This document shows, one piece after another, positions 49,400 to 55,199 of a stretch of 64,000 nt of DNA (position 1 is its first letter; each line of letters opens with the position of its first letter). The notes under the pieces were generated by a model, which saw only the letters and a program-made list of their open reading frames with translations, searched no databases and was not told where the DNA came from. Made by a program: the position numbers and the translations under genes. Origin of the DNA: a virus; the IMG/VR virus record IMGVR_UViG_3300020122_000057, positions 1 to 64,000 of that record; one strand, given 5' to 3'.

Positions 49400-49474
49400 T
49401 GGAGCCAAGTGGCTGAATCGAACAGCCGTTTGTGAGGTACAAGCTCACCGTAATAACCACTATACCAACTAGGC
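49400..49474 (-). tRNA. tRNA-Thr (TGT)
   Basis: Cloverleaf with acceptor GCCTAGT/ACTTGGC (one T-T mismatch), anticodon stem GTGAG/CTCAC around loop CTTGTAC, encoded CCA. Last tRNA of the leftward cluster. Confidence 0.8.
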
Positions 49475-49476
49475 TT

Positions 49477-49550
49477 TGGTGCGGTCAGAGGGAATCGAAC
49501 CCTCATTACCCGGTAGAGAGCCGGGAATTTTGCCATTAAACTATGGCCGC
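49477..49550 (-). tRNA. tRNA-Glu (CTC), tentative isotype
   Basis: Acceptor GCGGCC-like stem, anticodon stem CCCGG/CCGGG with loop CTCTCTA, encoded CCA. The anticodon reads CTC for GAG. The body resembles Gly tRNAs and base 37 is T, so the amino acid is uncertain. Confidence 0.65.
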
Positions 49551-49556
49551 GAAATT

Positions 49557-49630
49557 TGGAGCAGATTCAAGGAATCGAACCTTGATAACGTGCTTACCAA
49601 GCACGCGCACTGCCATTGTGCTAAACCTGC
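49557..49630 (-). tRNA. tRNA-Thr (GGT)
   Basis: Acceptor GCAGGTT/AATCTGC, anticodon stem CGTGC/GCACG with loop TTGGTAA, T-arm AGG TTCGATT CCT, encoded CCA. Confidence 0.85.
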
Positions 49631-49632
49631 TT

Positions 49633-49706
49633 TGGAGGTGGATGTGGGAGTCGAACCCACTACAATCGGGTTGCAGCCGACTAACTAACCGTTCGTCTTA
49701 CCCACC
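49633..49706 (-). tRNA. tRNA-Cys (GCA)
   Basis: Acceptor GGTGGGT/ATCCACC, anticodon stem GTCGG/CCGAT with loop CTGCAAC, encoded CCA. Its start overlaps the 3' end of the 60-aa gene by 22 bases. Confidence 0.88.
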
Positions 49707-49867
49707 CAAAATATTTCCCTACCAAGAGTATGAATCTTCTCCGCCAGTTCTCTATACTCATCCGTCCACTTACCAACTGGCAGCTTCTTGGTCAGAGCCT
49801 TTAATTCGTGGAAGGCGCGTTCCGCTTCAGCGAAACGATCCATCCAGTATTTGGTTTCTTCGTTCAT
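49685..49867 (-). CDS. 60-aa helical protein between tRNA genes
   Basis: The charged helical sequence (ETKYWMDRFAEAERAFHELK; WTDEYRELAEKIHTLGREIF) looks like a real coiled-coil microprotein, with little resemblance to tRNA shadows. No strong ribosome binding site is seen. Its 3' end overlaps tRNA-Cys. Function unknown. Confidence 0.6.
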   Translation of the reverse strand: MNEETKYWMDRFAEAERAFHELKALTKKLPVGKWTDEYRELAEKIHTLGREIFWVGKTNG

Positions 49868-49872
49868 AATAT

Positions 49873-49947
49873 TGGAGCACAGTGTTGGACTTGAACCAAC
49901 GTTGCCGCTTTACGAGAGCGGAGTCGTACCATCTGGACCAACCGTGC
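49873..49947 (-). tRNA. tRNA-Thr (CGT)
   Basis: Acceptor GCACGGT/ACTGTGC, anticodon stem CCGCT/AGCGG with loop CTCGTAA, encoded CCA. Third threonine tRNA, completing UGU/GGU/CGU. Confidence 0.85.
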
Positions 49948-49948
49948 T

Positions 49949-50022
49949 TGGAGCGAAGCCACGGATTTGCACCGAGACTTTTTGCTTGGAAGGCAAAAGT
50001 GCTGCTATTACACCAGCCTCGC
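49949..50022 (-). tRNA. tRNA-Gly (TCC)
   Basis: Acceptor GCGAGGC/GCTTCGC, anticodon stem TTTGC/GCAAA with loop CTTCCAA, encoded CCA. Overlaps the end of the HNH gene by 15 bases. Confidence 0.87.
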
Positions 50023-50421
50023 TTTCATACGTCTGTAAGTGCGTTCTGCATGACAATTAGCGCAAACAATCTCGCACTTTTCAATCTCTTCTAAAATCAC
50101 TGTTCTAGCTCTAAAGCGAACTATATTGGATAAGTTACCTATCTTTTTCCCGCGTACATGGTCGAAATGCATAATCCAAGGAGCGTATTTAACCTTACAA
50201 TCAATACACGGCCTGTCCTTAAAGGTATTCATCCATTTGACTTGTCGTTTTTCTCTTGCTTTAGCGCCAGCTACATATCTACTTTTATTCCTGAGATAAT
50301 GTTTACGATGATATTTTTTAGCGCAGGGCTTACAAATATCCCGGAAACCATCTATCTTTTTCGCATTCTTATGAAATTCCGAAAATTCTTTGCTTTGTTT
50401 ACACTTTCCACATTGTTTCAT
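50008..50421 (-). CDS. HNH endonuclease within the tRNA cluster (1)
   Basis: A 137-aa basic protein with N-terminal CGKCKQSKEFSEFHKNAKKI (two CxxC pairs with CKPC) and C-terminal CIDCK, MHFDHVRGKKIG and CEIVCANCHAERTYRR. This is the zinc-supported HNH fold of free-standing homing endonucleases. It sits between tRNA-Gly and tRNA-Arg; tRNA genes are favoured insertion sites for such elements. Confidence 0.88.
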   Translation of the reverse strand: MKQCGKCKQSKEFSEFHKNAKKIDGFRDICKPCAKKYHRKHYLRNKSRYVAGAKAREKRQVKWMNTFKDRPCIDCKVKYAPWIMHFDHVRGKKIGNLSNIVRFRARTVILEEIEKCEIVCANCHAERTYRRMKARLV

Positions 50422-50442
50422 ACTTCCAGTATATCACATATT

Positions 50443-50517
50443 TGGAGGTCAGGGACGGAATCCAACCGTCATTAATGCCTTCGGAGGGCATTGTCCTGTG
50501 CATTGAACGACCCAACC
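50443..50517 (-). tRNA. tRNA-Arg (CCG)
   Basis: Acceptor GGTTGGG/CCTGACC, anticodon stem ATGCC/GGCAT with loop CTCCGAA, encoded CCA. Confidence 0.85.
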
Positions 50518-50523
50518 TCAAAC

Positions 50524-50598
50524 TGGAGTCCCCCGTCAGAATTGGACTGACCTCTCAGGTTTCGTAGACCTGCGCTCTGTCCGATGAGCTAGAGGGAC
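50524..50598 (-). tRNA. tRNA-Arg (ACG)
   Basis: Acceptor GTCCCTC/GGGGGAC, anticodon stem CAGGT/ACCTG with loop CTACGAA, encoded CCA. A34 implies need for inosine modification by the host. Confidence 0.87.
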
Positions 50599-50927
50599 GA
50601 ATTTCTTCTTTTATCAGTGCGAATTCTGTGGCAATTAGCACACGTTATTTCGCACTTTTTAATTTCTTTAAGAAGGGCCTTCATAGGCACTTTATCGTAG
50701 TGACTGCTGATACTAAAAAGTTTCTTTCCTCTTACGTGGTCGAAATCCATACAAATCGGAGGAAATTTCTTTTTACAATCAACACAACGCTTCTTTTTGA
50801 ACGGAAGAATTACTTCAGTGTAAATTTTCTTCTTCCGAACTTTACTCTTCTTAAAATAGACTGCTTTGTTAGCGTAATAGTTTCGCTTCGAAGCAGCACG
50901 TCTGTCTTCTATTTGAGAGTAAGCCAT
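50589..50927 (-). CDS. HNH endonuclease within the tRNA cluster (2)
   Basis: A 112-aa very basic protein with CVDCKKKFPPICMDFDHVRG and CEITCANCHRIRTDKRR, closely similar in layout to HNH (1) nearby and probably a paralogue. It lacks the N-terminal zinc pair of that protein. The C-terminal end overlaps tRNA-Arg by 10 bases. Confidence 0.85.
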   Translation of the reverse strand: MAYSQIEDRRAASKRNYYANKAVYFKKSKVRKKKIYTEVILPFKKKRCVDCKKKFPPICMDFDHVRGKKLFSISSHYDKVPMKALLKEIKKCEITCANCHRIRTDKRRNSSL

Positions 50928-50934
50928 TAAAAAG

Positions 50935-51098
50935 TTTCCGGCAGTCGGGTAGACGCGAGTGCTGAACTCGTGTGGACCCTCGTCGTCAGCAACGACTTAC
51001 TACCGAAATTTGAATCCCCGCATGTCAATCCATGCGCCCCCTAGAAAATGGTCACTCTACGTCCGCGCAAGGCTCGCGTGAGTTTCCGGGACTGATAT
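50935..51098 (-). other. unassigned structured stretch inside the tRNA cluster
   Basis: No open frame or complete tRNA is visible. A 68-base unit is closed by CGGTAGT/ACTGCCG, as a tRNA would be, and contains hairpins GTCG/CGAC and CGAG/CTCG, but no proper T-arm. A GCATG/CATGC hairpin follows upstream. It may be decayed tRNA or an unknown RNA. Confidence 0.4.
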
Positions 51099-51173
51099 TG
51101 GTACGCCGCCGAGGAATCGAACCTCGCTAGCTTGCGTGTAGGGCAAGTGCATGAGCCTATCTGCCAGCAGCGT
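51099..51173 (-). tRNA. tRNA-Val (TAC)
   Basis: Acceptor ACGCTGC/GCGGCGT, anticodon stem CTTGC/GCAAG with loop CCTACAC (C rather than T at 33), encoded CCA. Confidence 0.78.
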
Positions 51174-51260
51174 AAAGGAGTCCGAATCCAATGTCCCTGA
51201 GAACCGGACCCCGGTTGAAGTTCAAAGCTTGGGATAGGGCTAGCTTCAACCGTTCTATTC
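51174..51260 (-). other. spacer with a 9-bp hairpin, no gene seen
   Basis: CGGTTGAAG and CTTCAACCG form a perfect 9-bp stem with a 23-base loop. The part next to tRNA-Val contains GTCCGAATCC, which recurs at about 55150. No coding content is evident. Confidence 0.45.
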
Positions 51261-51334
51261 TGGAGCGAAGCACGGGAATCGAACCCGTCTTTAATCGTTG
51301 GCAACGATTCGTACTGCCAATGTACGAGCCTCGC
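51261..51334 (-). tRNA. tRNA-Gly (GCC)
   Basis: Acceptor GCGAGGC/GCTTCGC, identical to tRNA-Gly (TCC). Anticodon stem AATCG/CGATT with loop TTGCCAA, encoded CCA. Confidence 0.87.
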
Positions 51335-51340
51335 AAAATC

Positions 51341-51413
51341 TGGTAACGGAGGTGAGAGTTGAACTCACGGAGGTCTGCTTATGAGACAGACTTGAATACC
51401 CATTCTCCCCGTT
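51341..51413 (-). tRNA. tRNA-Met (CAT)
   Basis: Acceptor AACGGGG/CTCCGTT, anticodon stem TCTGT/GCAGA with loop CTCATAA, encoded CCA. There are no initiator-type G-C triplets in the anticodon stem. It could be elongator Met or a lysidine-type Ile. Confidence 0.8.
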
Positions 51414-51576
51414 AAACTTTCTTAAAACCCTTCATTTGAAGCCACTGATCGGAATTTCGTTGCTTTTCCGTCTCAGAGCAAATCTTATTAAAGTTCTTTC
51501 GTATCTCGCTTCCGTGCATTGGACGCTCCCAACGTTCATTGCCCCGGATAATAACCGCTGTCATCTTCACAGCCAT
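51412..51576 (-). CDS. 54-aa basic protein between tRNA genes
   Basis: From ATG 51576 the frame encodes MAVKMTAVIIRGNERWERPM followed by a Lys/Arg/Gln-rich helical tail. No strong ribosome binding site is present; a second in-frame ATG four codons later is possible. It ends at the tRNA-Met start. Function unknown. Confidence 0.45.
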   Translation of the reverse strand: MAVKMTAVIIRGNERWERPMHGSEIRKNFNKICSETEKQRNSDQWLQMKGFKKV

Positions 51577-51582
51577 AAAATT

Positions 51583-51659
51583 TGGTGCGCCGCCTCCGAT
51601 TCGAACGGAGAAGAATTCGGGTTTGAGCCGAATATGTCTGCCAGTTGCATCAGCAGCGC
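51583..51659 (-). tRNA. tRNA-Leu (CAA), short variable arm
   Basis: Acceptor GCGCTGC/GCGGCGC, anticodon stem TTCGG/CCGAA with loop CTCAAAC, encoded CCA. The D-arm is Leu-like, but the variable region is only about five bases, unlike standard leucine tRNAs. Confidence 0.75.
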
Positions 51660-51665
51660 GAAAAT

Positions 51666-51741
51666 TGGTAGTGGTGGATGGATTCGAACCATCTGCCTTT
51701 CCCTTATCGGGGGAACGCGCATCCACATGGGCCTCACCACT
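51666..51741 (-). tRNA. tRNA-Ile (GAT)
   Basis: Acceptor AGTGGTG/CACCACT, anticodon stem TTCCC/GGGAA with loop CCGATAA, encoded CCA. C33 is unusual. Confidence 0.78.
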
Positions 51742-51743
51742 AT

Positions 51744-51838
51744 TGGTACTCGCCGTAGGAGTTGAACCTACTCGGCACCGCTAATCGGGCGGCAATCCAA
51801 GGTTTATAAAACCTCGCTGCATACCGATGCTGACGAGT
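51744..51838 (-). tRNA. 95-nt tRNA, Ile (TAT) by position, with a second anticodon-like arm
   Basis: Acceptor ACTCGTC/GGCGAGT, T-arm GTAGG/CCTAC, encoded CCA. The first arm GAGGT/ACCTT holds loop TTTATAA (TAT). The long variable region holds a second arm GCCGC/GCGGT with 7-base loop CCGATTA (GAT). The isotype is therefore uncertain. Confidence 0.6.
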
Positions 51839-51845
51839 ATTAAAT

Positions 51846-51921
51846 TGGGGTGTCCCCTTGGGTTCGAACCAAGATAGGCGGATTCACAGTCCGGCGTCTT
51901 AACCAGTTAGACTAAGGACAC
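51846..51921 (-). tRNA. tRNA-His (GTG)
   Basis: Anticodon loop CTGTGAA; discriminator C73 opposite an encoded extra 5' G, as expected for histidine identity; encoded CCA. Confidence 0.88.
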
Positions 51922-51928
51922 ACAAAAT

Positions 51929-52014
51929 TGGAGGAAGATAGACGAATCGAACGCCCATCCTTTCGGATGCCTCCGGGTTCAAACCGGATCGCCCACCATT
52001 GAGCGGTACCTTCC
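51929..52014 (-). tRNA. tRNA-Ser (TGA)
   Basis: Acceptor GGAAGGT/ATCTTCC, anticodon stem TCCGG/CCGGA with loop TTTGAAC, long variable arm with CATCC/GGATG, encoded CCA. Confidence 0.88.
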
Positions 52015-52015
52015 T

Positions 52016-52103
52016 TGGCGGAAACGGCAGGATTTGAACCTGCGATACCTTTCGGTACTCCACGTTAGCAGTGTGGCGCTTTAAGCCTCTCAGCCACGTT
52101 TCC
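52016..52103 (-). tRNA. tRNA-Ser (GCT)
   Basis: Acceptor GGAAACG/CGTTTCC, anticodon loop CTGCTAA, long variable arm TACC/GGTA, encoded CCA with G discriminator. Confidence 0.9.
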
Positions 52104-52114
52104 ACAAAAATTTT

Positions 52115-52189
52115 TGGTGGGCCTATCAGGACTCGAACCTGAATTCTCCGATTAAGAGTCGGTACTTCTGCCTATTGAATTATAGGCCC
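52115..52189 (-). tRNA. tRNA-Lys (CTT)
   Basis: Acceptor GGGCCTA/TAGGCCC, anticodon stem CCGA/TCGG with loop CTCTTAA, encoded CCA. Confidence 0.85.
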
Positions 52190-52199
52190 ACGTTAAATT

Positions 52200-52275
52200 T
52201 GGCTGGTACCCTCGGACTCGAACCGAGACCCTAGGCATTAACAGTGCCCTATCCTGCCATTTAGACCAGATACCA
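52200..52275 (-). tRNA. tRNA-Asn (GTT)
   Basis: Acceptor TGGTATC/GGTACCA, anticodon stem GGGCA/TGCCT with loop CTGTTAA, G discriminator, encoded CCA. Confidence 0.88.
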
Positions 52276-52285
52276 GTAGAAACTT

Positions 52286-52939
52286 TTACTTCTGCGATTG
52301 TACCAAATTATCGTCGTCTTCGTCAAGCGCTTCTTGTTTCTGTTGCGCCGTAAATCCCTGATAATCGCCAGTGCTCTTATACGACGTAAGGGTTGCGCTC
52401 AGTGAACGAGTCGAACTTGCAGTTCCCGCAGCCGACGTTGCAAAACTCATGGCGTTTGATGCCGCGATATTATACTGTGCCGCCGTCAACACCGCATCCT
52501 GATTCGCACCAAGGAAGATAAATTCCCACTTGTACTTATCGTGCTGCTCGGTAATGAGTTTCTTTACCGTAGCCGCGCTGTGTTCCTTAGAAGCGTTCTC
52601 GTAACCATCGGTGATAATCACGATAGCAACCTTGTTTGGTCGCTGACTCTCATCGCGCTTCGCCAGTTCCGCGCCGATATCGAGAATTGTCTTCCCAATG
52701 GCATCGTGCAATGCCGTCGATCCGCGAGGATGAATCGTGTGCTTTGGTGCATCCTTAATGTTGGTACGGAATACTGGTTCGTACACGTCATCAAATTGGA
52801 ACAGAGCTAACTCGCACTCCTGCGGGTCTTGTTTCTGCTTGTTGATGAACTCGTCCAGTGCCGTCTGCATATTATTCAAGCAGCTTCCAATGGAACCAGA
52901 ACGATCCAAAACTAACCCAATTAATGTAGCATCCTTCAC
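52286..52939 (-). CDS. von Willebrand factor A (VWA) domain protein
   Basis: A 217-aa protein with a complete metal-ion adhesion site: DRSGSIGS (D-x-S-x-S) near residue 12, RGSTALHDAIG with the MIDAS Thr, and ITDGYENAS with the third Asp. The GTG start is behind AAGGAGGAAGTACA. The C-terminal 60 residues are Ser/Thr-rich and then acidic. Similar stand-alone VWA proteins occur in many phages with unknown partners. It is the largest protein gene inside the tRNA cluster. Confidence 0.9.
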   Translation of the reverse strand: MKDATLIGLVLDRSGSIGSCLNNMQTALDEFINKQKQDPQECELALFQFDDVYEPVFRTNIKDAPKHTIHPRGSTALHDAIGKTILDIGAELAKRDESQRPNKVAIVIITDGYENASKEHSAATVKKLITEQHDKYKWEFIFLGANQDAVLTAAQYNIAASNAMSFATSAAGTASSTRSLSATLTSYKSTGDYQGFTAQQKQEALDEDDDNLVQSQK

Positions 52940-52959
52940 TGTACTTCCTCCTTAGAAAA

Positions 52960-53033
52960 TGGTCGAGGAGGAGTGAGTCGAACACTCGCCGCTGGCTTCC
53001 GACGCCAGCAGACTTCCGTTATCAGACTCCTCG
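52960..53033 (-). tRNA. tRNA-Pro (CGG)
   Basis: Acceptor CGAGGAG/CTCCTCG, anticodon stem CTGGC/GCCAG with loop GTCGGAA, encoded CCA. Confidence 0.87.
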
Positions 53034-53036
53034 ATT

Positions 53037-53113
53037 TGGTACTCGCGGCGGGATTCGAACCCGCGTTCTTGGCTTGAAAGGCCAGCGTCCTAGGCCGACT
53101 AGACGACATGAGC
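53037..53113 (-). tRNA. tRNA-Glu (TTC)
   Basis: Acceptor GCTCATG/CGCGAGT (one mismatch), anticodon loop CTTTCAA, D-arm TCGTCTAG typical of Glu tRNA, encoded CCA. Confidence 0.88.
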
Positions 53114-53122
53114 ACTTACATT

Positions 53123-53196
53123 TGGCGGGGCCGAGGGGAATCAAACCCCCGTTCTTCGAGCGACAGTCGAGCGTCTTGTCGCTAGACGACGACCCC
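53123..53196 (-). tRNA. tRNA-Asp (GTC)
   Basis: Acceptor GGGGTCG/CGGCCCC, anticodon stem TCGA/TCGA with loop CTGTCGC, G discriminator, encoded CCA. Confidence 0.87.
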
Positions 53197-53202
53197 TAAG
53201 AT

Positions 53203-53277
53203 TGGTGGACAATGCGGGACTCGAACCCGCAACTCCTCGGTGCAAGCGAGGCGTTTTCCCATTAGCACTAATCGCCC
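53203..53277 (-). tRNA. tRNA-Ala (TGC)
   Basis: Acceptor GGGCGAT/ATTGTCC, anticodon stem CCTCG/CGAGG with loop CTTGCAC, encoded CCA. The usual G3-T70 alanine identity pair is present. Confidence 0.9.
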
Positions 53278-53282
53278 AAATT

Positions 53283-53358
53283 TGGTGGCATACCTCAGAT
53301 TCGAACTGAGACAACCCTGCTCCCAAAGCAGGTGGGCTGGCCATTACCCTAGTACGCC
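53283..53358 (-). tRNA. tRNA-Pro (TGG)
   Basis: Acceptor GGCGTAC/GTATGCC, anticodon stem CCTGC/GCAGG with loop TTTGGGA, encoded CCA. Its 5' end overlaps the HNH gene by 15 bases. Confidence 0.88.
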
Positions 53359-53727
53359 GTGAACTCGTTTTTCATATTCCAGTATAGCATGGCAGTTAGC
53401 GCATAATACATCGCATTTTTCCATCTCTGCTAATACTGACTTCCAAGAATAATTTCTACTATCCGCCAATCTAAATTTCTTCTCTGACGGAATCCTATGA
53501 TGAAACTCTAATGCGGTATGGTGTAAATCAAAACCACATTTCTTACAGCCCTTAGTAAGTTTTACTTCTCGAATTTTTCCTTGTATCTTATCTCTATATC
53601 GCTTATCCCGCAACTTTCTAGTAGTTCTATTGTACTTATGAAGGCTTTCCTTAAAATTTTTACTAGATAAGTACGCTTGCCCCTTTTCGGACTTAATCCA
53701 CTTTCTTTGATTCTCAATACGACCCAT
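53344..53727 (-). CDS. HNH endonuclease within the tRNA cluster (3)
   Basis: The 127-aa basic protein has CKKCGFDLHHTALEFHHRIP and CDVLCANCHAILEY, the beta-beta-alpha HNH pattern with zinc cysteines. It lies between tRNA-Pro and the RNase P RNA gene, whose 3' end is one base before its start. The long Lys/Arg-rich N-terminus is probably a DNA-binding helix. Confidence 0.87.
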   Translation of the reverse strand: MGRIENQRKWIKSEKGQAYLSSKNFKESLHKYNRTTRKLRDKRYRDKIQGKIREVKLTKGCKKCGFDLHHTALEFHHRIPSEKKFRLADSRNYSWKSVLAEMEKCDVLCANCHAILEYEKRVHGVLG

Positions 53728-53728
53728 T

Positions 53729-53989
53729 TTTGGTTAGTTGATAGCCCGGTTTCTGTACTCAATATATGAGTGACAATCATTCATCTAACGCATCCAACCC
53801 GATAACCAAATGCCTAGGGCCAGTAGTTATCCTATTTGGACTTGCTCCCGGCGTGGAGTCATTTAGAGAAATACTCTAACTCTTACCCGTCACATTACTG
53901 TGCCTGCAACTTCCACAGCGCCGTTACCCTTTGGAGACCGGAACTTCCTCCCCCATCTTCCGATGGCAGCGATTGTCTAACTAACCAAA
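53729..53989 (-). ncRNA. rnpB: RNase P RNA, reduced form (about 261 nt)
   Basis: The minus strand shows the conserved regions of bacterial RNase P RNA in order. A perfect 11-bp P1 (53979-53989 with 53729-53739) closes it. CR-I is GAGGAAGTTCCGG (53938-53950), J11/12 is GGGAGCAAGTCCAAATAGG (53831-53849), CR-IV is TAGATGAATGATTGTC (53772-53787) and CR-V is ACAGAAACCGGGCTAT (53741-53756). CCGG/CCGG pairing with a bulged U can form P4. At 261 nt it lacks some peripheral helices of the roughly 380-nt host type. It would cleave 5' leaders from the tRNA transcript in which it lies. Confidence 0.93.
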
Positions 53990-53992
53990 TTC

Positions 53993-54099
53993 TGGAGCAG
54001 CGAGTGGGACTCGAACCCACATGCAACGAGTTTAGGAAACTCGCGCCTAAGAGGAGCCTGTTTAGAAGACAGGTGCCTATTCCATTCAGCCACCGCTGC
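53993..54099 (-). tRNA. 107-nt tRNA-Arg (TCT) with a second anticodon-like arm (CCT)
   Basis: Acceptor GCAGCGG/TCGCTGC, anticodon stem CCTGT/ACAGG with loop CTTCTAA, T-arm GTGGG/CCCAC, encoded CCA. The 36-nt variable region has a second arm CGAGT/ACTCG with 7-base loop TTCCTAA. Confidence 0.75.
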
Positions 54100-54107
54100 T
54101 CAAATCT

Positions 54108-54182
54108 TGGCGAGTCACGGTGGACTTGAACCACCACCAGCAGGGTTGGAGCCTGCCATGCTGCCACTAACACTTGCGACTC
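54108..54182 (-). tRNA. tRNA-Trp (CCA)
   Basis: Acceptor GAGTCGC/GTGACTC, anticodon stem GCAGG/CCTGC with loop CTCCAAC, G discriminator, encoded CCA. Confidence 0.88.
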
Positions 54183-54190
54183 GCAAATTC

Positions 54191-54265
54191 TGGTTGCCCC
54201 AGTAGGACTCGAACCTACATGAACGCCTTCAGAGGGCGTCATCCTGCCAATTAGATGACAGGGCA
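54191..54265 (-). tRNA. tRNA-Gln (CTG)
   Basis: Acceptor TGCCCTG/TGGGGCA, anticodon stem ACGCC/GGCGT with loop CTCTGAA, encoded CCA. Confidence 0.88.
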
Positions 54266-54267
54266 AT

Positions 54268-54343
54268 TGGTTCGGTGGGTACGATTCGAACGTACACCTA
54301 AGTGATTCAAAGTCACCCGTTCTACCAGTTAAACTACCGCCGA
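54268..54343 (-). tRNA. tRNA-Gln (TTG)
   Basis: Acceptor TCGGCGG/CCACCGA (one mismatch), anticodon stem GGTGA/TCACT with loop CTTTGAA, encoded CCA. Confidence 0.86.
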
Positions 54344-54352
54344 ACAGAAACT

Positions 54353-54428
54353 TGGTGGACCGCCCGAGACTTGAACTCAGACCCCAGCGCTTAAAAGGCG
54401 CGTATGCTGCCACTCGCACTCGCAGTCC
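54353..54428 (-). tRNA. tRNA-Lys (TTT)
   Basis: Acceptor GGACTGC/GCGGTCC, anticodon stem GCGC/GCGC with loop CTTTTAA, encoded CCA. Confidence 0.85.
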
Positions 54429-54434
54429 AAAAAC

Positions 54435-54523
54435 TGGTGGAGGGGGAAGGATTCGAACCTTCATAACCCAATGGGCAATCGGTGTTACAGACCGACGGGG
54501 CCACCTGTTGCCCCAACCTCTCC
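54435..54523 (-). tRNA. tRNA-Tyr (GTA)
   Basis: Acceptor GGAGAGG/CCCCTCC (one mismatch), anticodon stem TCGGT/ACCGA with loop CTGTAAC, long variable arm CCCA/TGGG, encoded CCA. Confidence 0.88.
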
Positions 54524-54591
54524 ACGAAACTTAGCGACGTGTTATCTGGCTTCAACGTCGTTCCACTCCAAGACCAGAGAGTGTTCGAATT

Positions 54592-54675
54592 TGGTACCCC
54601 GCGAGGGATTTGAACCCCCATGCCTTTCGGCGCTGCGTTCTAAGCGCAGTGTGTCTGCCGTTCCACCAGCAGGGT
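54592..54675 (-). tRNA. tRNA-Leu (TAG)
   Basis: Acceptor ACCCTGC/GCGGGGT, anticodon stem CTGCG/CGCAG with loop CTTAGAA, long variable arm GCC/GGC, encoded CCA. The 68 bases before it (54524-54591) hold a CGACGT/ACGTCG hairpin and no gene. Confidence 0.87.
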
Positions 54676-54677
54676 AT

Positions 54678-54752
54678 TGGTGGTCAACCAAGGAATTGAA
54701 CCTTGTACGCGCACGGCTTCAACGTGCCGCTCTACCGATGAGCTAGATGACC
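54678..54752 (-). tRNA. tRNA-Phe (GAA)
   Basis: Acceptor GGTCATC/GTTGACC (one mismatch), anticodon stem GCACG/CGTGC with loop TTGAAGC, encoded CCA. Confidence 0.87.
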
Positions 54753-54761
54753 ACGAAACTT

Positions 54762-54839
54762 TGGTGGGCAAGGTCGGAGTCGAACCGACAGGCACTCCGT
54801 TTTAAGCGGAGTAGGTATGCCAATTCCCTTCACTTACCC
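54762..54839 (-). tRNA. tRNA-Leu (TAA)
   Basis: Acceptor GGGTAAG/CTTGCCC, anticodon stem CTCCG/CGGAG with loop CTTAAAA, short variable region, encoded CCA. First tRNA after the leader RNA. Confidence 0.85.
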
Positions 54840-55171: not shown

Positions 55172-55199
55172 ATTATAGCACATCCTGTTTATTTGTCAA
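55172..55199 (-). promoter_or_regulatory. near-perfect sigma-70 promoter of the tRNA operon
   Basis: TTGACA (55199-55194) and TATAAT (55177-55172) both match the consensus perfectly, with a 16-base spacer ending in TGTGC. It is the best promoter in the window and should drive the leader RNA, RNase P RNA and tRNAs leftward. Confidence 0.88.

What the first reader, a model, noticed from the sequence alone, without database searches (positions are those of the whole stretch)
53729..53989. Phage-encoded RNase P RNA gene inside a full tRNA cluster
The minus strand carries all the conserved regions of bacterial RNase P RNA in order, closed by a perfect 11-bp P1 helix, in only about 261 nt. It lies among tRNA genes whose transcripts need 5' processing. 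Most phages rely on the host enzyme. The gene may encode a reduced ribozyme that uses the host protein subunit, or one that competes with the host RNA. Conservation of CR-I, IV and V suggests it is active.
Basis: partly seen in the sequence, partly recalled or inferred. Interest (0 to 1): 0.88.

Follow-up and report, generated by a model that had tools for sequence, protein, structure and literature searches.

The report
Phage RNase P RNA without specificity domain
A virus of bacteria carries, in the middle of its own complete set of transfer-RNA genes, a stripped-down copy of the RNA enzyme that trims transfer RNAs; at least 19 other viral sequences carry the same stripped-down form, and it has lost the half that normally recognises the substrate.

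Summary
Rfam's class A RNase P RNA model matches 53988-53726 (-) at 131.8 bits, E 3.6e-40. It lies within a same-strand tRNA cluster of 32 ARAGORN tRNAs plus one odd tRNA-like gene; the 32 have 32 distinct anticodons, cover 20 amino acids and all encode CCA. The record is an IMG/VR phage (terminase, portal, capsid).

One detail of the finding is wrong: not all conserved regions are present. CR-I, CR-IV and CR-V are there, but the specificity domain (CR-II, CR-III, P12-P14) is gone, replaced by one hairpin.

I found 19 further distinct viral-contig RNAs of this form, all beside tRNA genes. Across the 20, 57 pairs in 11 helices pair in 93.4% of cells (31-40% when slid). P4, nearly invariant in cells, pairs 140/140 with compensatory changes; the P6 pseudoknot covaries too. 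None of the 20 has ordered CR-II/CR-III motifs; nearly all short cellular and other phage RNase P RNAs examined do.

No RnpA gene was found in this record or 50 others. Best explanation: a C-domain-only ribozyme co-transcribed with the phage tRNAs, working with host RnpA. No prior report in the held literature. Activity is untested.

The parts
53729..53989 (-). RNase P RNA gene (rnpB-like), 261 nt P1 to P1
   Evidence: RF00010 131.8 bits, E 3.6e-40; P1 ends located
53979..53989 (-). P1 5' strand (pairs with 53729-53739), perfect 11 bp
   Evidence: P1 covaries at 7 of 10 counted columns in the family, 75.5% of cells paired
53971..53977 (-). P2 5' strand GACAATC (pairs with GATTGTC 53772-53778)
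   Evidence: 140/140 cells paired, 6 of 7 pairs with changes on both sides
53938..53950 (-). CR-I GAGGAAGUUCCGG with P4 5' strand and the bulged U (U69 equivalent)
   Evidence: P4 140/140 paired with compensatory changes at 3 pairs; column 90 T in every sequence
53904..53918 (-). P8 CUGUGGAAGUUGCAG, family signature
53891..53902 (-). P9 hairpin CACA-GUAA-UGUG
   Evidence: covaries in all 4 pairs
53852..53890 (-). remnant replacing the specificity domain: ACGGGUAAG + 6-bp hairpin + CUCCACG; no CR-II, CR-III, P12, P13, P14
   Evidence: basal stem of this hairpin covaries in the family, 5 of 5 pairs
53831..53845 (-). CR-IV / J5-15 GCAAGUCCAAAUAGG
53816..53819 (-). CCCU that can pair with AGGG (53927-53930): P6 pseudoknot
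   Evidence: P6 covaries at 5 of 5 pairs in the family, although the window copy is misaligned there and its own pairing was read by eye
53742..53756 (-). CR-V ACAGAAACCGGGCUA with P4 3' strand
49400..54839 (-). tRNA cluster: 32 ARAGORN tRNAs, 32 anticodons, 20 amino acids, all with encoded CCA
53993..54099 (-). tRNA-like gene directly upstream; its CCA ends 3 nt before P1
   Evidence: RF00005 48.5 bits
53344..53727 (-). HNH endonuclease ORF beginning 2 nt after P1
   Evidence: phrog_2255 E 2.1e-24
55172..55199 (-). consensus sigma-70 promoter TTGACA-16-TATAAT, extended -10, upstream of the whole cluster
   Evidence: 12 of 12 match; total promoter-like count in the region is not above chance

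Best explanation
A functional phage-borne class A RNase P RNA reduced to its catalytic domain. It is transcribed as part of the phage tRNA operon, is released by processing of its neighbours, folds into P1-P9, P15-P17, P6 and P19 around the P4 catalytic core, and joins the host RnpA protein, which contacts the catalytic domain. The resulting holoenzyme trims the 5' leaders of the phage's own closely packed pre-tRNAs, so that the phage's complete tRNA set can be made when host RNase P is limiting or host RNA is being degraded. Shown: homology, conserved structure under selection, loss of the specificity domain, position among tRNA genes, no RnpA gene detected. Inferred: co-transcription, catalysis, partner protein, benefit to the phage.
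For: RF00010 hit E 3.6e-40. Nineteen further distinct viral-contig RNAs with the same architecture, each with tRNAs in its locus; 6 of 12 relatives tested also pass Rfam's curated cut-off. Covariation: 57 pairs, 93.4% paired against 31-40% slid and 74% shuffled, 43 pairs with changes on both sides, covariation score 0.528 against 0.166 shuffled. P4 keeps pairing through C-G to A-U and U-A and G-C to C-G and A-U swaps while the bulged U stays. P6 (J5/7 with L17) covaries. All tRNAs lie on the RNase P RNA strand in all 20 loci, often within 10 nt of it. No RnpA in own record or in 50 others, while the same model rings in 10 of 14 control genomes. C-domain-only E. coli RNA is catalytic with and without C5, with help from a P6-like pairing (PMC5839562).
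Against: No experiment. Removing the S-domain lowers kobs/Ksto about 500-fold for E. coli RNA alone (PMC5839562), so the natural C-domain form needs compensation that I cannot show. Records are metagenomic and possibly incomplete, with unknown hosts, so the RnpA partner and any shortage of host RNase P are guesses. No isolated phage with this RNA was found in INPHARED with the queries tried.
Confidence: 0.68

Rival explanations
1. Decoy: the RNA binds host RnpA and starves host RNase P, so host tRNA maturation stops while phage tRNAs are matured in another way.
For: No RnpA found in the phage record; the protein-binding side (C-domain) is kept while the substrate-recognition side is lost.
Against: Catalytic core (P4 with bulged U, CR-IV, CR-V) is kept by compensatory change in 20 sequences, which a protein decoy would not need; a phage with about 32 own tRNAs needs RNase P.
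Confidence: 0.1
2. Functional RNase P RNA that works with a phage- or host-encoded protein other than RnpA, or with a separate RNA supplying the specificity part.
For: Conserved CAUUCRAG-like bulge and basal stem in the hairpin that replaces the S-domain in 17 of 20 relatives suggest a new binding element; RnpA absent from all 51 records.
Against: No candidate partner identified; the window copy, L162 and L169 lack the bulge motif.
Confidence: 0.15
3. Decaying copy of a host gene picked up with a tRNA cluster, without function.
For: Loss of a whole domain; phages acquire host genes (established knowledge).
Against: Covariation across 20 sequences and 140/140 pairing of P4 and P2 would not be expected of decaying genes.
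Confidence: 0.02
4. Host DNA: the record is a bacterial fragment misfiled as viral.
For: Short RNase P RNAs also exist in bacterial genomes.
Against: Terminase, portal, major head protein and phage DNA polymerase on the same record; related records carry phage terminase, portal and helicase.
Confidence: 0.02

Closest known systems
Bacterial class A RNase P RNA (Rfam RF00010, rnpB, E. coli M1 RNA)
   Same: P1-P5, P7-P9, P15-P17, P6 pseudoknot, CR-I, CR-IV, CR-V, bulged U in P4; passes the curated cut-off
   Different: No CR-II/CR-III, P12, P13, P14, P18; P4 sequence changed by compensatory swaps; encoded in a phage tRNA cluster; no RnpA gene found with it
Type T (type P) RNase P RNA of Pyrobaculum and relatives (Lai et al. 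2010, cited in PMC4919922 and PMC5839562)
   Same: Almost only the catalytic domain, specificity domain degenerate, P6 kept, P18 absent
   Different: Archaeal and cellular; several archaeal-type proteins (established knowledge); the phage RNA matches the bacterial class A model
Diverged RNase P RNAs of CPR bacteria lacking P12 (PMC8172020)
   Same: Loss of P12-P14 and P18 reported for two CPR genomes
   Different: Short CPR (Shapirobacteria, Dojkabacteria) RNAs I looked at keep CR-II and CR-III; the phage family has lost both and shows P4 covariation
S-domain-less RNase P RNA of a Spirochaetes MAG (VKGY01000052, L080)
   Same: No ordered CR-II/CR-III; only RNase P RNA above the cut-off in that genome
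   Different: Chromosomal contig with MreB, MreC, DnaG and sigma-70, no tRNA cluster; different P4 sequence
RNase P RNAs of other viral contigs in tRNA clusters (e.g. L010, L025, L002, L021, L050, L022)
   Same: Viral contigs, embedded among tRNA genes, no RnpA
   Different: Most keep CR-II/CR-III; some look like ordinary actinobacterial-type RNAs, so several acquisitions are likely (inference)

Membership tests
Bacterial class A RNase P RNA (RF00010) | Covariance-model score above the curated gathering score | tested here: met
   131.8 against 100 bits
Bacterial class A RNase P RNA (RF00010) | Catalytic core: P4 with bulged U, CR-I, CR-IV, CR-V | tested here: met
Bacterial class A RNase P RNA (RF00010) | P6 pseudoknot (distinguishes A from B type) | tested here: met
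   covaries at 5 of 5 pairs, 88% paired in the family; 4 possible pairs in the window copy
Bacterial class A RNase P RNA (RF00010) | Specificity domain with CR-II and CR-III | tested here: not met
   0 of 20 in the family, 13 of 14 controls positive. Archaeal type T RNAs without it are still called RNase P RNA, so this makes it a variant, not a typical class A member
Bacterial class A RNase P RNA (RF00010) | Cleaves pre-tRNA 5' leader | not testable with these tools
   needs an in vitro assay
Bacterial RNase P holoenzyme | RnpA (PF00825) partner encoded with it | tested here: not met
   0 in own record and 0 in 50 others; host RnpA could serve. Records may be incomplete
Archaeal type T RNase P RNA | Archaeal sequence class | tested here: not met
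   the best clan match is bacterial class A

The most novel reading that the evidence does not exclude
Phages have evolved a distinct class of RNase P: catalytic-domain-only RNA in which the substrate-recognition domain has been replaced by a small hairpin module (with a conserved bulge in most members), spread with tRNA operons among phages with different structural genes, and able to keep tRNA maturation running independently of the host's RNase P RNA.
Probability: 0.4. Interest if true: 0.9.

Novelty: new variant of a known kind. Interest (0 to 1): 0.8.

Why it matters
Phages with large tRNA sets are generally taken to depend on host RNase P to mature them. A phage-borne ribozyme of this kind, seen in many viral contigs, would mean that tRNA processing itself is taken over. 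The RNAs are also a natural experiment on how little of RNase P RNA is needed: the specificity domain has gone and the near-invariant P4 helix changes with compensation, which gives direct covariation evidence for pairs that hardly vary in cells.

Tried and rejected
BLASTN of this RNA, of a relative and of five other viral-contig RNase P RNAs against INPHARED gave no isolated phage: hits were tRNA genes, bacterial contigs filed as phage, or unannotated fecal contigs; the Microcystis phage MaAM05 hit lies beside fabI, engB and glyS and looks bacterial. The neighbouring DNA polymerase gave no close relatives. The window's capsid and terminase proteins matched none of 28 records carrying related or other RNase P RNAs, but those searches had no positive control. 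phrog_2 terminase found nothing in 22 relatives, although another terminase family hits one of them. A first unordered regex test for CR-II/CR-III gave false positives from P8, P9 and J5/7 and was replaced by an ordered test. I first thought the tRNAs lack CCA; all 32 encode it. Literature searches found no phage RNase P RNA, but subscription papers and preprints are not held.

Full report
What is there. On the minus strand at 53989-53729 lies a 261-nt bacterial-type RNase P RNA gene. Rfam's RF00010 (class A) matches 53988-53726 over the whole model with 131.8 bits (gathering score 100), E 3.6e-40. The window is most of a 70,826-bp IMG/VR virus record with terminase, portal, major head protein and a phage DNA polymerase.

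Surroundings. The gene sits in a cluster of 32 ARAGORN tRNAs between 49400 and 54839, all on the minus strand, with 32 different anticodons for all 20 amino acids; all 32 encode CCA. A 33rd tRNA-like gene (53993-54099), found by Rfam but not ARAGORN, ends 3 nt before P1. An HNH endonuclease ORF starts 2 nt after P1. A perfect sigma-70 consensus promoter lies at 55199-55172, upstream of the whole cluster, so the RNase P RNA is probably part of one long tRNA transcript (inference). The number of promoter-like sites in the region is not above chance, though a 12/12 match is notable.

Anatomy. P1, P2, P3, P4 with the bulged U, P5, P7, P8, P9, P15, P16, P19, CR-I, CR-IV and CR-V are present (helices other than those counted were read by eye); P6 can form from AGGG and CCCU. 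Contrary to the finding, CR-II and CR-III are not present: 101 model positions of the specificity domain are replaced by 25 nt, a single hairpin UUAGAG-UAUUU-CUCUAA between ACGGGUAAG and CUCCACG. P18 is missing too.

Relatives. Collection scans with spaced CR-I/CR-V patterns and with the P8 signature GCCGTGGAAGNTGCGGG gave 19 further distinct viral RNAs of the same form: L061, L063, L162, L163, L164, L165, L169, L170, L171, L189, L200, L210, L212, L216, L222, L227, L228, L231, L232. Six of twelve tested also pass Rfam's cut-off. All 20 loci hold tRNAs (3 to 32), all on the RNase P RNA strand; several keep the order tRNA-Arg - RNase P RNA - tRNA-Ser or tRNA-Cys - RNase P RNA - tRNA-Lys, often with spacers under 10 nt. 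Chance pattern hits in other contigs had almost no tRNAs. Phage proteins were confirmed on three relatives' records (helicase phrog_1967 twice, terminase phrog_38 and portal once).

Selection on structure. On the alignment A1 a structure of 57 pairs in 11 helices gave 93.4% paired cells, against 74.0% in shuffles and 31-40% with the partner slid; 43 pairs have changes on both sides (shuffles 25), covariation score 0.528 (shuffles 0.166, slid at most 0.093), no shuffle of 500 reaching any of these. Relatedness inflates the shuffle comparison, but the slid control keeps it. I drew the structure partly from these sequences, which favours the paired percentage more than the number of compensatory changes. 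P4 and P2 pair in 140 of 140 cells. In P4, C-G is replaced by A-U or U-A, G-C by C-G or A-U, with the bulged U kept in all. Established knowledge: P4 is the catalytic core and nearly invariant in cells. P6 (J5/7 with L17), P15, P16, P9 and the stem that replaces the specificity domain also covary. P1 is the weakest helix (75.5%), partly from alignment shifts.

Specificity domain lost. An ordered search for CR-II then CR-III finds nothing in 20 of 20 family members and finds the pair in 13 of 14 controls of similar length (phage and cellular); the exception is L080. Seventeen of 20 carry a conserved bulge AUU(C/G)(G/A)AG or the close form AUUCAAA in the replacement hairpin; it looks a little like a T-loop, which is only a resemblance. 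A scan of 84,980 bacterial and archaeal species for short RNase P RNAs gave cellular RNAs that, by motif search, nearly all keep CR-II and CR-III. L080, from a Spirochaetes MAG, does not; it is the only RNase P RNA above the cut-off in that genome and lies beside MreB, MreC, DnaG and sigma-70. So loss of the domain is not confined to phages. CPR RNAs without P12 are published (PMC8172020), as is archaeal type T (PMC4919922, PMC5839562).

Wider pattern. Many other viral contigs carry RNase P RNA inside tRNA clusters, from fuller forms to two further groups in which I saw no CR-II/CR-III (L009/L032/L062/L064/L065/L177/L179 and L019/L046/L161), and some RNase P RNA-bearing contigs are 360-500 kb long. 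Several acquisitions are likely (inference). None of 50 such records, nor the window's, encodes RnpA, while the model rings in 10 of 14 control genomes.

Mechanism. E. coli C-domain RNA is catalytic with and without C5, aided by a P6-like pairing, though about 500-fold weaker on a model substrate without protein (PMC5839562). The phage RNA keeps what the C-domain needs, including P6. The most likely mechanism is therefore a C-domain ribozyme joined to host RnpA that matures the phage's own tRNAs. Catalysis, partner and benefit are inferred. A decoy for RnpA is less likely because the catalytic core is under selection.

Novelty. I found no report of phage-encoded RNase P RNA or of a family of bacterial-type RNase P RNAs without specificity domain in the held open literature; subscription papers and preprints were not searchable. 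I call it a new variant of a known kind.

Noticed in passing
window 53993-54099 (-): tRNA-like gene with two anticodon-like arms (loop CTTCTAA = UCU and loop TTCCTAA = CCU, both Arg), as if two tRNA-Arg genes had fused; found by Rfam at 48.5 bits, missed by ARAGORN. ARAGORN finds no other tRNA-Arg for AGA or AGG in the cluster.
   Followed up: partly
L080:4022-4307 (-), MAG contig VKGY01000052: A Spirochaetes genome whose only RNase P RNA above the Rfam cut-off also lacks CR-II and CR-III.
   Followed up: partly
L009, L032, L062, L064, L065, L177, L179: Second group of viral RNase P RNAs without visible CR-II/CR-III, with a shared CACUAAGCCNAACUUAAAAAGCA-like stretch instead and, in L064, an apparent 7-bp P6.
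   Followed up: no
L019, L046, L161: Third group of very short viral RNase P RNAs, high G+C, in tRNA clusters.
   Followed up: no
family alignment A1, about columns 246-253: Conserved AUU(C/G)(G/A)AG bulge in the hairpin that replaces the specificity domain; absent from the window copy, L162 and L169.
   Followed up: partly
window 53344-53727 (-): HNH endonuclease ORF directly after the RNase P RNA; a possible mobility element of the cluster.
   Followed up: no
L249, Microcystis phage MaAM05 (MW495066.1) 111321-119473: Public 'phage' record carries fabI, engB, glyS and an RNase P RNA match: this part looks like bacterial DNA.
   Followed up: partly
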